From positions 1 to 64,000 of the forward strand of contig CAKZLO010000075.1 of the NCBI GenBank assembly GCA_937127125.1: a stretch of DNA of 64,000 bases, written 5' to 3'. The translations under genes were made by a program, and so were the position numbers. This DNA comes from an uncultured Ardenticatenia bacterium. Its GTDB lineage: Bacteria; Chloroflexota; Anaerolineae; 4572-78; NAK82. The notes below the pieces were generated by a model. It did not search any database. It was not told the DNA's origin and was given only the letters and a program-made list of their open reading frames with translations. Shown here in pieces: positions 40,833 to 44,590 of the stretch. Position 1 is the first letter of the stretch. Each line of letters opens with the position of its first letter.

Positions 40833-43412
40833 TCAAGGTGCACCCACAACGACATTCGTCAAGTGCACAGCATTTGAGACCAGATTGCCGGTTGCGTCAA
40901 ATACGTCGAGCCGCTGACCATCGCTCGGCCGGTACATGCCAACTAGGACGGGATATTCGCCGGGCGGTGTGTCTACATAGATGTGCAGTGCATGGTGATC
41001 AGCAATCACCTGTCCCGGTCGCCAGAGGTAGGTGGGGTATGTCCAGCAGACGGGGCGTCCATCAGACTGAGCCCAAATTGACCCTTCTTGTTCCAAGTGC
41101 ACGAACACGTGATAGTCCTCCTCAATTTTGCTCAGCACCTGCCAGTACAGGGTTACAGTCAGCCGACCGTCAGGATAGGCACGTTGGACGTCCAGATCGT
41201 AACTCACCAGTCGGACAAGGCCGCCCAGGTCAGCTTGGACGCTGTGTCTGCCATGTTTCGGGCGCGCGAAGGCGGCTGGTGGTGTGTCAAAGTCGAAAGC
41301 GGCTGCCAGTGTGTTGTAGTCGAGCTGACCAAGCCGAGCATCTGATGGACGATTCTGGTAGACCACAAGCCCTTTGCCATTGGTCAGCTTCACCTCAGCA
41401 AAGACCTCGTATTCTGTCTGGATGCGTTGCATATCTATCGACTGTGCGTCCACTACAGTGCTGGCAATGAGATAATACTTGGGCTGAGCGTCGCACGCCC
41501 GTGCTGCATGGCGCGTGTACCAGGCTGTGATATCTGCCTCTTCATTGCTTCCATAATCGCCTTGTAACTGCCCGTTCGCATAAAGTGCCCCAATTGCTTT
41601 CCAACCTGTGCGATGTGGAAAGCCGAAGAAGCCGGTGGGAGGCGGCTGCGCATAAGGCGTCCAGTAGATTGCAGTGCGCCCAGCCGGCCAGTCTGTTCGA
41701 AACTCAACATCTTGGCGCAAGTATGCCAACCACAGGTAACCGGAAAACAATCCCAGAACCACCAATCCTATCGCCGCCAGCGGCCAAGAAAGCTGAAAGC
41801 GCCATAGAGGGGTAGTAAGCTCTTTTGGTGATACCAGATAACGAGCTGCCATAACAACCGACAGCGCGGCGAGGAGCGTCCACGCGGGGACGATGGTGTA
41901 AATGTGAGTGAGCGGCAACGCTACTCCAAAGTTGTAGCCGAGAAAAGCTGTTGCTAACCATAGCACAATGGCACGCTGACCATCGTCCAGTTCTGCTGAG
42001 GTGAACGCACCTAACAGCAGCAACAGGAAGGGGAGAAAGGCCAGATCTACCCATGGTGTGCGAAATGCCTCGGGGTAGATCATCAGAGCTAGGATAGCCA
42101 GTACCAGCATCATCGGGAACCACCACGATGCTCCCCTTAGCTGCCGCACAAGGGGTGCCTGTCGGCAAGCCCATGCCAAGAAACCGAGTACCAGAATACC
42201 AGTTAGTGCGTAATAGTAAAAGGAGGTGTAGAACACGTTGAAGTGCTGGAAGCTTGCTAGATTGTTCTTGAGCAATGTACCGCCGATACGGTCACTCAGA
42301 TAATCCCCAGTTCGTGTTGCTTGCGCGTCCAGCCCATATGGCAGATAGAACATGCCGGCCACCAGAAGCGTGGTGACAACGGCCACGAGCACGCCCCGGA
42401 GAATTGGTAGGCTATTTGCTGTCCTTCTCTCACGCCACCACGCTTTGATGATGATGTAGATTATTGGTGGCAGTATGAGCAGTGCATCGTAATGGGCAAG
42501 CAAGGCGCTTCCTATAAAAAGGCCGCACAAGGCCAGCCAGCGCGAGCTGCCTTGCCGCCGCCATTGCCAGCTGCACCACAACGCCAGTCCACTCAGCAAC
42601 ACTACTAGCACTTGGTATTGGACAATACGCGAGAAGGCCACCATGAAGCCGTTGAGCGCGAGGAGAACAGCTGCTGCCACTCCGACGCCGGTTGCCGCTC
42701 GATAACCTTTGAACAGGCTGGAGGCTAACAGGAATCCCAACAGTGGGATTAAAGTGCCTGCCAGTGCAAACGGCAGTCGTGCCATACCCTCATCGATGTT
42801 TCTGGCGAGACCCCAAACTGCTGTGGTCAACAACACTTCGGCTGGACCCTTACCCCGCAGAAGAAGCGCATCCTCGTGACCCTCAAGGGCATCGGCTGCT
42901 GCCAGCATCACCAGAGCCTCATCACCCTGAAACTCGCTATAGTCGAGCCAGGCGAAGCGAAACAGAGCGCCTAGGATGGCAATAACAAGCACCAAAAGGA
43001 GAATAGTTCGCTGAGAGCTCGCTGGCATGGATGAGTGTCCTGAGAACGAGATCGTCCTGGTGCGGTCGGTGGGCATAGTAAATAGGGGTATGAGTGCAAA
43101 CGTGTCAAGACCAACTAACTCAGCCCAACTTGGTATGTGACCAGGAAGGTAATGCAATAGCAACATGAAGCAGAAGACGTATGCATAACTCAGCCCTATG
43201 CCGACCACCCAGCGGGTAAGCTGGCTAGCATCGCGCAGCAATGCCTCCGCCCAGAGCAGGCCTGGTATACACAACAGGAGCAGCACTCCCCACGCACGCA
43301 CGGGCACATTTTCCGGCAATATGAGTGCTATGTGGCCCAACAGTAGAAGTATTATAAAAACACTTTTAGGCGGGTTAAGGAACTTTGCCACCGCAGGTTC
43401 AAACCGCATCAC
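40833..43412 (-). CDS. GT39/ArnT-like polytopic glycosyltransferase
   Basis: An 859-residue protein with about 13 membrane segments in residues 15-590 and a soluble C-terminal domain of about 260 residues. GT-C hallmarks: FRFAWLDYSEFQGDEALVML (acidic first loop), LLLRGKGPAEVLLTTAVWGL, and FMVAFSRIVQYQVLVVLLSG. These enzymes move a sugar from a polyprenyl phosphate to an outer acceptor. The C-terminal part (YWQVLSKIEEDYHVFVHL, PGQVIADHHALHIYVDTPPG) is a beta-sandwich often attached to such proteins in Chloroflexota, as far as I recall. Acceptor could be surface proteins like those encoded next to it; unproven. Confidence 0.82.
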   Translation of the reverse strand: MMRFEPAVAKFLNPPKSVFIILLLLGHIALILPENVPVRAWGVLLLLCIPGLLWAEALLRDASQLTRWVVGIGLSYAYVFCFMLLLHYLPGHIPSWAELVGLDTFALIPLFTMPTDRTRTISFSGHSSMPASSQRTILLLVLVIAILGALFRFAWLDYSEFQGDEALVMLAAADALEGHEDALLLRGKGPAEVLLTTAVWGLARNIDEGMARLPFALAGTLIPLLGFLLASSLFKGYRAATGVGVAAAVLLALNGFMVAFSRIVQYQVLVVLLSGLALWCSWQWRRQGSSRWLALCGLFIGSALLAHYDALLILPPIIYIIIKAWWRERRTANSLPILRGVLVAVVTTLLVAGMFYLPYGLDAQATRTGDYLSDRIGGTLLKNNLASFQHFNVFYTSFYYYALTGILVLGFLAWACRQAPLVRQLRGASWWFPMMLVLAILALMIYPEAFRTPWVDLAFLPFLLLLLGAFTSAELDDGQRAIVLWLATAFLGYNFGVALPLTHIYTIVPAWTLLAALSVVMAARYLVSPKELTTPLWRFQLSWPLAAIGLVVLGLFSGYLWLAYLRQDVEFRTDWPAGRTAIYWTPYAQPPPTGFFGFPHRTGWKAIGALYANGQLQGDYGSNEEADITAWYTRHAARACDAQPKYYLIASTVVDAQSIDMQRIQTEYEVFAEVKLTNGKGLVVYQNRPSDARLGQLDYNTLAAAFDFDTPPAAFARPKHGRHSVQADLGGLVRLVSYDLDVQRAYPDGRLTVTLYWQVLSKIEEDYHVFVHLEQEGSIWAQSDGRPVCWTYPTYLWRPGQVIADHHALHIYVDTPPGEYPVLVGMYRPSDGQRLDVFDATGNLVSNAVHLTNVVVGAP

Positions 43413-44067
43413 ACTAGTTGCATGAGACCTTGTGCCATGTTTAGCATTTATTCACCAGCGAACGCACATCATGGCACAGTTCATTGTCTTTGGGAAATCT
43501 CTGAACGAACGAGTCATCTGTTGGAAGCAGCCATCCATAAATTGTAACAGTACTAGTGATTATCCGCAGGCGGTTTGGGATTTGAGGAGCCCTGTCCGAT
43601 GTAGTCTGTGGGGGTATGAGCAGCCCAGCGGAGTGCTACGGAGGACGGAGCCACAGAGACGATGGGGCAAGAATGTGCCTTGGGCAGTCTACCACTTAGC
43701 GAGATGGAGTACACAGAGTACACACTGCAGCGGTTGGGGGAGCCGGTTATGAGACGCTGGCCGGGTAGGTAGTTGCGCTGAGTAGTCCAGAGAGCCGTTC
43801 AGCGGTTTGGACTGGTGAGTCGCCGGTGATCACTGAAATGGCGTACAGCGTCCCGCGGAACGGGAGGAACATCTGGTTGCAACATCGGGAGTTGTGGATG
43901 CGCTGTCTGGGGAGCGTACTGGGGTTGACTGCAGATCCGGAGGACCCTTGTACCCTGTTAGCAGGCATCCGTGTCATTTTCGTCCCTACCACCACTCTGA
44001 CATTTGCAGTCCACCATCCCTTTCCCAAGGCAGGTTGGACTTGTGGGTAATCACTAGAAAACCTATC
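43413..44067. other. Gene-poor region upstream of the ncRNA candidate
   Basis: About 650 bp with no supported gene. On the minus strand a frame of 150 codons (43747-44199) overlaps it; its C-terminal part (RGTLYAISVITGD) looks mildly protein-like, but it crosses the promoter and start of the RNA candidate and has no ribosome site, so it may be a decayed gene at best. Confidence 0.5.
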
Positions 44068-44096
44068 TTGAAATGGATAGCCATTTGTGATATAAT
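44068..44096 (+). promoter_or_regulatory. Near-perfect promoter of an apparent non-coding transcript
   Basis: TTGAAA (44068-44073), 17 bp, TATAAT (44091-44096). No coding gene follows on the plus strand before the next strong hairpin. Confidence 0.72.
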
Positions 44097-44102
44097 AAAA
44101 GT

Positions 44103-44345
44103 AAGCAGCGAAAACTCGCTCAGAGTAATGGCAGGTGTCAGACGTAGTGGGTTTATTCTTTACACGTGCAAGCCTGCCTATAGCACGAGGATGGTGCACA
44201 ACGGGTCTGAGCTAAAGAAGGCCAGCAGTGAACACCCCTATCGGTGAACGATAGTCCGCTCTGGGCGGGTTGGTTTGGTTGCTTATAAGCAATTGAATAG
44301 AGTTTTACAAGAAGAGCCACGGCTTCGGACGCCGTGGCTCAATCT
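44103..44345 (+). ncRNA. Candidate structured small RNA, about 240 nt
   Basis: Bounded by the promoter above and the hairpin at 44314-44340. Ordered helices seen: GCTCAGA (44118-44124) with TCTGAGC (44206-44212) closing a domain; inside it GGCAGG (44130-44135) with CCTGCC (44173-44178) and GCAC (44183-44186) with GTGC (44194-44197). Then CTATCG (44238-44243) with CGATAG (44249-44254), CCGC with GCGG (44256-44268), and the self-complementary TTGCTTATAAGCAA (44279-44292). I do not recognise RNase P, tmRNA, SRP or 6S cores, though 6S cannot be ruled out by eye. A 39-codon frame within it has no ribosome site. Confidence 0.5.
44314..44340. terminator. Bidirectional hairpin between ncRNA candidate and ferredoxin gene
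   Basis: GAGCCACGGC (44314-44323), 7-base loop, GCCGTGGCTC (44331-44340). On the minus strand, coming from the ferredoxin gene, the stem is followed by TTCTTGT, the better T-tract; on the plus strand by AATCTTTG. Confidence 0.65.
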
Positions 44346-44392
44346 TTGCCTGACAACTTCACAATGGACAGTGTCTCTGCTGGGCGGTAGAG

Positions 44393-44590
44393 CTATTCCT
44401 CAGTGACCGTGATCGCTTCCTCAGGACACGCTGCCACACAGGCCTCGCAGCCTATACAGTCTTCAGGGCGTATTGCCTCCGCGACATCCTTGCCGTCCTT
44501 TTGGGTGATGACCAGTACCTCACTGGGGCAGCTATCTACGCAGTCCCCGCATGCCTGGCATTTATCCCAGTCGATGATGATCTTGTACAT
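44393..44590 (-). CDS. 2[4Fe-4S] ferredoxin
   Basis: A 65-residue protein with two cluster motifs, CQACGDCVDSCP and CIGCEACVAACP, each Cys-x2-Cys-x2-Cys-x3-Cys-Pro. No extra domain. It carries electrons at low potential in the cytoplasm, possibly to the 2-hydroxyacyl-CoA dehydratase activase encoded at 47268, which depends on such a donor (inference). It follows rnhB by 30 bp in the same direction. Confidence 0.93.
   Translation of the reverse strand: MYKIIIDWDKCQACGDCVDSCPSEVLVITQKDGKDVAEAIRPEDCIGCEACVAACPEEAITVTEE

What the first reader, a model, noticed from the sequence alone, without database searches (positions are those of the whole stretch)
44068..44345. Promoter-driven, highly structured RNA with no gene
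A TTGAAA-N17-TATAAT promoter faces about 240 bases of non-coding DNA full of complementary segments (a closing helix 44118-44124/44206-44212 enclosing two hairpins, then three more stems) and ends at a strong hairpin. I do not recognise a known RNA core. It lies between a membrane glycosyltransferase gene and the ferredoxin-rnhB-rplS unit.
Basis: partly seen in the sequence, partly recalled or inferred. Interest (0 to 1): 0.65.

Follow-up and report, generated by a model that had tools for sequence, protein, structure and literature searches.

The report
Genus-specific structured small RNA gene
This is a real, stand-alone gene for a folded non-coding RNA of about 240 bases. It is kept by all three sequenced species of one Chloroflexota genus, matches no described RNA family, and what it does is still unknown.

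Summary
The observation largely holds and the gene looks real. A TTGAAA-17-TATAAT promoter (44068-44096) precedes about 240 nt of non-coding, strongly folding RNA (z -4.5) that ends at a terminator. No Rfam family matches, even at E<=10. The genome's 6S RNA and tmRNA lie elsewhere.

Both other held genomes of the genus carry one copy with the same promoter, core and terminator, but in another neighbourhood (lysC-RNA-arsR). It is therefore a free-standing gene, not a leader or UTR. Its core is 73-82% identical, while four-fold sites of lysC are only 35-55% identical, so the RNA is under strong selection. RNAalifold beats every column shuffle (z about -5).

The conserved one is 44116-44125/44259-44268. 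It encloses four hairpins and a 28-nt block identical in all three species, which could form an H-type pseudoknot.

No homolog was found outside the genus (CM over 396 class genomes; pattern over about 85,000 genomes). I infer a lineage-specific trans-acting structured sRNA. Its target is unknown, and a seed-pairing test found no shared mRNA target.

In passing: a 505-bp inverted-repeat-bounded element sits directly upstream of this promoter and, in a second copy, upstream of the tmRNA gene.

The parts
44068..44096 (+). sigma-70 type promoter, TTGAAA-17-TATAAT with TG before the -10
   Evidence: 11/12; the TTGAA(A/G) and TATAAT boxes at the same spacing in G001 and G002
44103..44345 (+). structured non-coding RNA gene (inferred transcript, ends by inference)
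   Evidence: fold z -4.5; homologs L009:958-1164 and L010:1121-1325; covariance model hits only these three
44103..44109 (+). P1 5' strand, pairs with 44278-44284 in the window sequence (register differs in homologs; competes with P7)
   Evidence: MFE fold; AATCAG/CTGATT in homologs by reading
44116..44125 (+). P2 5' strand: conserved closing helix, partner 44259-44268
   Evidence: pair probabilities near 1 for most pairs in all three species; pairs kept with U-G/U-A and C-G/U-G changes
44259..44268 (+). P2 3' strand
44130..44178 (+). P2a variable hairpin: long in the window (about 36 nt longer), short in homologs; peripheral expansion
   Evidence: alignment A3, MFE folds
44183..44197 (+). P3 hairpin GCAC-[GAGGATG]-GTGC with conserved AGGA in the loop
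44204..44223 (+). P4 hairpin GGTCT/AGGCC, loop with largely conserved CTAAAGAA
   Evidence: U-G to U-A change in G001
44228..44255 (+). 28-nt block identical in all three species, GTGAACACCCCTATCGGTGAACGATAGT; contains P5 (44238-44243/44249-44254) and a possible pseudoknot pairing 44233-44236/44243-44246
   Evidence: permutation p 0.0001 for the run; pattern unique to the genus. Pseudoknot is by reading only: its pairs never vary
44279..44292 (+). P7, alternative small 3' hairpin TTGC/GCAA (TTAC/GTAA in G002, one pair broken in G001)
44291..44299 (+). invariant tail AATTGAATA, mostly single-stranded
44314..44340 (+). terminator hairpin GAGCCACGG-CTTCGGACG-CCGTGGCTC, convergent with and probably shared by the ferredoxin-rnhB-rplS operon
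43553..44057 (.). flanking, not part of the RNA: about 505-bp dispersed repeat bounded by 16-bp inverted repeats, MITE-like, ending 10 bp before the -35 box
   Evidence: inverted repeat; 92-93% identical copy upstream of tmRNA

Best explanation
It is an independent gene for a structured small RNA of about 205-245 nt, made from its own sigma-70 promoter and ended by an intrinsic terminator, and restricted (as far as detectable) to one genus of Chloroflexota. Shown: promoter, core fold and terminator are conserved as one unit under purifying selection, and the unit sits in different gene neighbourhoods. Inferred: it is transcribed and acts in trans. Most likely mechanism, inferred: a long-range helix (P2) folds the RNA into a compact multibranch body that presents an invariant, possibly pseudoknotted 28-nt element and two conserved loops to a partner, more likely a protein or ribonucleoprotein than a long antisense target, so that it works as a scaffold or protein-binding regulator.
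For: Homologs with promoter and terminator in both other genus members, in a different neighbourhood (lysC and arsR instead of PMT_2 and ferredoxin), so it is not a cis element of a neighbour. Core identity 73-82% against 35-55% at four-fold sites of lysC. RNAalifold energy beats all 400-500 column shuffles, z about -5 on the + strand and -3.4 on the - strand. P2 near probability 1 in all three. 96.7% of cells paired against 29-39% when slid. The 28-nt block is invariant (permutation p 0.0001), and its in-frame 8-codon frame (VNTPIGER) has no synonymous change, which argues for RNA-level rather than peptide-level constraint. No credible Rfam match. A 10-nt seed complement of the invariant block found no target shared by all three genomes, which weakly disfavours simple antisense action through that stretch.
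Against: No expression data. Only three sequences, and only 4 pairs with changes on both sides, which 25 of 500 shuffles reach, so covariation alone is weak. P1 registers differ and compete with P7. The pseudoknot is untested, because its pairs never vary. Protein binding is inferred without any partner. The four other family genomes, which lack a hit, are incomplete (63-85%).
Confidence: 0.45

Rival explanations
1. Trans-acting antisense sRNA: unpaired invariant segments (GUGAACACCC before P5, the CUAAAGAA loop, the AAUUGAAUA tail) pair with mRNA ribosome-binding sites, the rest being a stability scaffold with a terminator.
For: Typical size, own promoter and terminator, and invariant loops and tail. 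Most bacterial orphan sRNAs work this way (general knowledge).
Against: The exact 10-nt complement GGGTGTTCAC had no site shared by all three genomes. The two sites shared by two genomes lie mid-gene in alanine-racemase-like and RNase III-like reading frames (my reading of the translations). Hits on both strands together were also above the control in all three genomes (12 against 8, 9 against 4, 9 against 2), which composition could explain.
Confidence: 0.3
2. A diverged or second copy of a known housekeeping RNA (6S-2, RNase P fragment, SRP, tmRNA-like).
For: Size, strong constitutive-looking promoter, and a GAGGAAAGT string in G002 reminiscent of RNase P conserved region I (by reading and from memory).
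Against: No bacterial Rfam family matches at E<=10 with permissive filters. 6S is at G000:C44:8079-8260 with 61 bits and is the only hit. tmRNA is elsewhere in all three genomes. The multibranch fold lacks the single 6S bubble.
Confidence: 0.06
3. Leader, attenuator or 3' UTR element of a neighbouring gene.
For: In G001 and G002 an arsR-type gene follows on the same strand.
Against: A terminator intervenes in all three. In the window no gene follows on the + strand and the next operon is convergent. The neighbours differ between species.
Confidence: 0.04
4. Small protein or dual-function RNA: an 8-codon frame GTG AAC ACC CCT ATC GGT GAA CGA TAG behind AAGAAGG is conserved.
For: The frame is open in all three species with an upstream AAGAAG(G/A).
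Against: All its codons are identical although four-fold sites in lysC are 35-55% identical, so the constraint is on nucleotides. It also overlaps P5.
Confidence: 0.05
5. Guide-type RNA of a mobile or defence system (tracrRNA, omega RNA, retron) separated from its protein.
For: The gene, or its neighbourhood, has been rearranged within the genus, and a MITE-like repeat lies next to it.
Against: No such protein gene is adjacent in the loci examined, it is single copy in each genome, under long-term selection, and no Rfam family of this sort matches. The genome was not searched for Cas9, Cas12 or reverse transcriptase.
Confidence: 0.05

Closest known systems
6S RNA (RF00013)
   Same: Free-standing stable RNA gene of about 200 nt whose 5' and 3' parts pair in a long helix
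   Different: Multibranch core instead of one large bubble; no match to the model; the genome has its own 6S elsewhere
Orphan structured RNA candidates such as Chloroflexi-1 (RF01698; PMC2864571)
   Same: Lineage-restricted structured RNA of unknown function found by comparative analysis
   Different: No match to RF01698 or any of 4227 families at gathering score; this one has a conserved promoter and terminator
Bacterial trans-encoded sRNAs (general class)
   Same: Own promoter, intrinsic terminator, invariant unpaired segments, narrow phylogenetic range
   Different: A large closed multibranch fold and an invariant hairpin or pseudoknot element; no target found

Membership tests
6S RNA (RF00013) | Match to the covariance model above the gathering score | tested here: not met
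   the only hit in the genome is C44:8079-8260
6S RNA (RF00013) | Closing stem, large central bubble, terminal hairpin that mimics an open promoter | tested here: not met
   predicted multibranch loop with four hairpins
tmRNA (RF00023) | tRNA-like ends and tag frame; model match | tested here: not met
   the real tmRNA is elsewhere
RNase P RNA / SRP RNA | Model match | tested here: not met
   no match at E<=10 in 43400-44420; their positions elsewhere in the genome were not searched
Chloroflexi-1 (RF01698) | Model match | tested here: not met
   family listed in PMC2864571
trans-encoded sRNA | Own promoter and intrinsic terminator | tested here: met
   (sequence level, conserved in three species)
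trans-encoded sRNA | Locus independent of a neighbouring gene | tested here: met
   different neighbours in window and G001/G002
trans-encoded sRNA | Discrete transcript | not testable with these tools
   no RNA-seq available
trans-encoded sRNA | Conserved pairing with a target mRNA | tested here: inconclusive
   one 10-nt seed complement, no target shared by three genomes
CsrB/RsmZ-type protein sponge | Many GGA-bearing hairpin loops | tested here: not met
   only P3 has a conserved AGGA loop (by reading of A3)

The most novel reading that the evidence does not exclude
A new RNA class: a compact multibranch RNA with an invariant pseudoknot that binds a specific protein or small ligand in trans, in uncultured Chloroflexota.
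Probability: 0.15. Interest if true: 0.7.

Novelty: new member of a known kind. Interest (0 to 1): 0.45.

Why it matters
It is a well-bounded, undescribed RNA family in a phylum where my literature searches found almost nothing on small RNAs. Its conservation far exceeds that of synonymous sites, so it matters to the cell. Promoter, ends, closing helix and invariant element are now defined well enough for direct test in metatranscriptomes. It is otherwise an ordinary kind of thing: a genus-specific orphan sRNA.

Tried and rejected
6S and tmRNA were rejected by finding the real ones elsewhere. A leader role was rejected by the changed neighbourhood and intervening terminators. A CsrA sponge was rejected by loop content. 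A peptide was rejected by the lack of synonymous change. Weak covariance-model hits in G015, G019 and G023 (E 3-7) were treated as chance. The 27-34 base matches L002, L006 and L007 are, by reading, a chance promoter-like stretch and the ferredoxin terminators, not paralogs. A synteny search for a diverged copy downstream of lysC in two other family genomes found a convergent epimerase-like gene (my reading of the sequence) and no RNA. Phage, viral-contig and further Rfam searches were empty for this RNA. Paper searches for Chloroflexota small RNAs gave nothing specific.

Full report
OBSERVATION. The window carries TTGAAA-17-TATAAT at 44068-44096, 11 of 12 matches with TG before the -10. From about 44103 to 44345 there is no gene-sized frame on the + strand shared with the homologs. 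The stretch folds at -95 kcal/mol, z -4.5 against dinucleotide shuffles, 0 of 200. It ends in a 10-bp hairpin 44314-44340 followed by AATCTTT. Rfam 15 gives no match over the whole window at gathering thresholds and only three chance-level eukaryotic matches at E<=10 in 43400-44420. ARAGORN finds no tRNA or tmRNA in the window.

HOMOLOGS. Blastn over 61 genomes (own and relatives) found homologs only in the two other held genomes of the genus. A pattern scan of about 85,000 species found two contigs, titled Ardenticatenia bacterium Nak82 (QEXY01000158.1) and Anaerolineae bacterium SKYB15 (JANXAX010000356.1), whose lengths match the G002 and G001 contigs. In both, the promoter, the start point, the core, the 3' tail and the terminator hairpin align with the window. 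A covariance model from the three finds exactly one copy in each and nothing else in 396 genomes of the class. Permissive scoring of 25 genomes of the order gives only hits at E 3 or worse outside the genus. Its invariant 27-mer, with up to 3 mismatches, is absent from 295 other class genomes.

NEIGHBOURHOOD. In the window the RNA lies between a PMT_2 glycosyltransferase and the convergent ferredoxin-RNase HII-L19 operon. In G001 and G002 it lies between lysC (aspartate kinase, named by my reading; ACT domains by Pfam) and an ArsR-family gene. The RNA therefore does not belong to a neighbour. Two family relatives have an epimerase-like gene (by my reading) directly after lysC and no RNA there.

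SELECTION. Core identity is 0.73, 0.75 and 0.82 for the three pairs, whereas four-fold degenerate sites of lysC in the same pairs are 0.35, 0.37 and 0.55 identical. The RNA is thus conserved far beyond near-neutral sites. The longest invariant run is 28 columns (44228-44255), permutation p 0.0001.

FOLD. RNAalifold on the core gives -41.6 kcal/mol against -22.7 +/- 3.6 for column shuffles (z -5.25, 0 of 400); without the window-only expansion z is -4.9; the reverse complement is weaker (z -3.4). The conserved fold is: P2 closing helix 44116-44125/44259-44268; variable hairpin P2a; P3 (GCAC/GTGC, AGGA in the loop); P4 (GGTCT/AGGCC); P5 (CTATCG/CGATAG). On the alignment 96.7% of cells pair, against 29-39% when slid by 1 to 3 columns, but only 4 pairs change on both sides, which 25 of 500 shuffles reach. 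Structure is therefore supported mainly by energy and selection, less by covariation. In the 28-nt block CACC (44233-44236) can pair with GGUG (44243-44246) across P5, an H-type pseudoknot of standard geometry; this is my reading, and since these bases never vary it is untested.

WHAT IT IS NOT. The genome's 6S RNA is at C44:8079-8260 (61 bits) and its tmRNA at C35:39169-39592. A peptide is unlikely, because the 8-codon frame in the invariant block shows no synonymous change. A CsrA sponge is unlikely with one conserved GGA loop.

MECHANISM. Shown: a promoter-RNA-terminator unit, conserved as a unit, location independent, structured, single copy. Inferred: transcription, action in trans. A test of the most obvious antisense seed (complement of GUGAACACCC) found 9 to 12 sites per genome counting both strands and the RNA itself, against 2 to 8 for the reversed control. 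None was shared by all three apart from the RNA's own; two shared by G001 and G002 lie mid-gene in alanine-racemase-like and RNase III-like frames. I therefore lean towards a folded scaffold or protein-binding RNA (0.45) over antisense action (0.3), with low certainty.

REARRANGEMENT (in passing). The 505 bp upstream of the promoter (43553-44057) is a dispersed repeat bounded by 16-bp inverted repeats, with a 92-93% identical copy between lysC and the tmRNA promoter in the same genome. The terminator hairpin occurs once in the window genome, shared by RNA and ferredoxin operon, but twice in G001 and G002, after the RNA and after the ferredoxin gene. In G001 and G002 the tmRNA gene has no such repeat upstream in the sequence held. 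The RNA gene and its surroundings have been rearranged within the genus, perhaps through these repeats.

VERDICT. A real-looking, undescribed, genus-specific structured sRNA gene; new as a family, ordinary as a kind.

Noticed in passing
window 43553-44057; L041 1132-1625 (G000:C35), L042 1812-2015, L043 1-44: A roughly 505-bp non-coding, inverted-repeat-bounded (MITE-like) repeat inserted directly upstream of this RNA's promoter and, 92-93% identical, upstream of the tmRNA promoter; further partial copies, one at a contig end.
   Followed up: partly
window 44314-44340; L006 1501-1528; L007 1501-1527; L009 about 1131-1157; L010 about 1292-1318: The hairpin GAGCCACGG..CCGTGGCTC occurs exactly once in the window genome (between RNA and ferredoxin operon) and exactly twice in G001 and G002 (after the RNA, after the ferredoxin gene), suggesting relocation of the RNA gene with its terminator.
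   Followed up: partly
G000:C35:39169-40740 (L041); L009; L010: lysC is followed by repeat plus tmRNA in the window genome but by this RNA plus arsR in the two congeners, a rearrangement involving two stable RNA genes.
   Followed up: partly
window 44130-44178: The window copy has a long hairpin expansion of about 36 nt where the homologs have a 3-4 bp hairpin.
   Followed up: no
window 44228-44254: The invariant block also reads as GTG AAC ACC CCT ATC GGT GAA CGA TAG behind AAGAAGG, an 8-codon frame present in all three species.
   Followed up: partly
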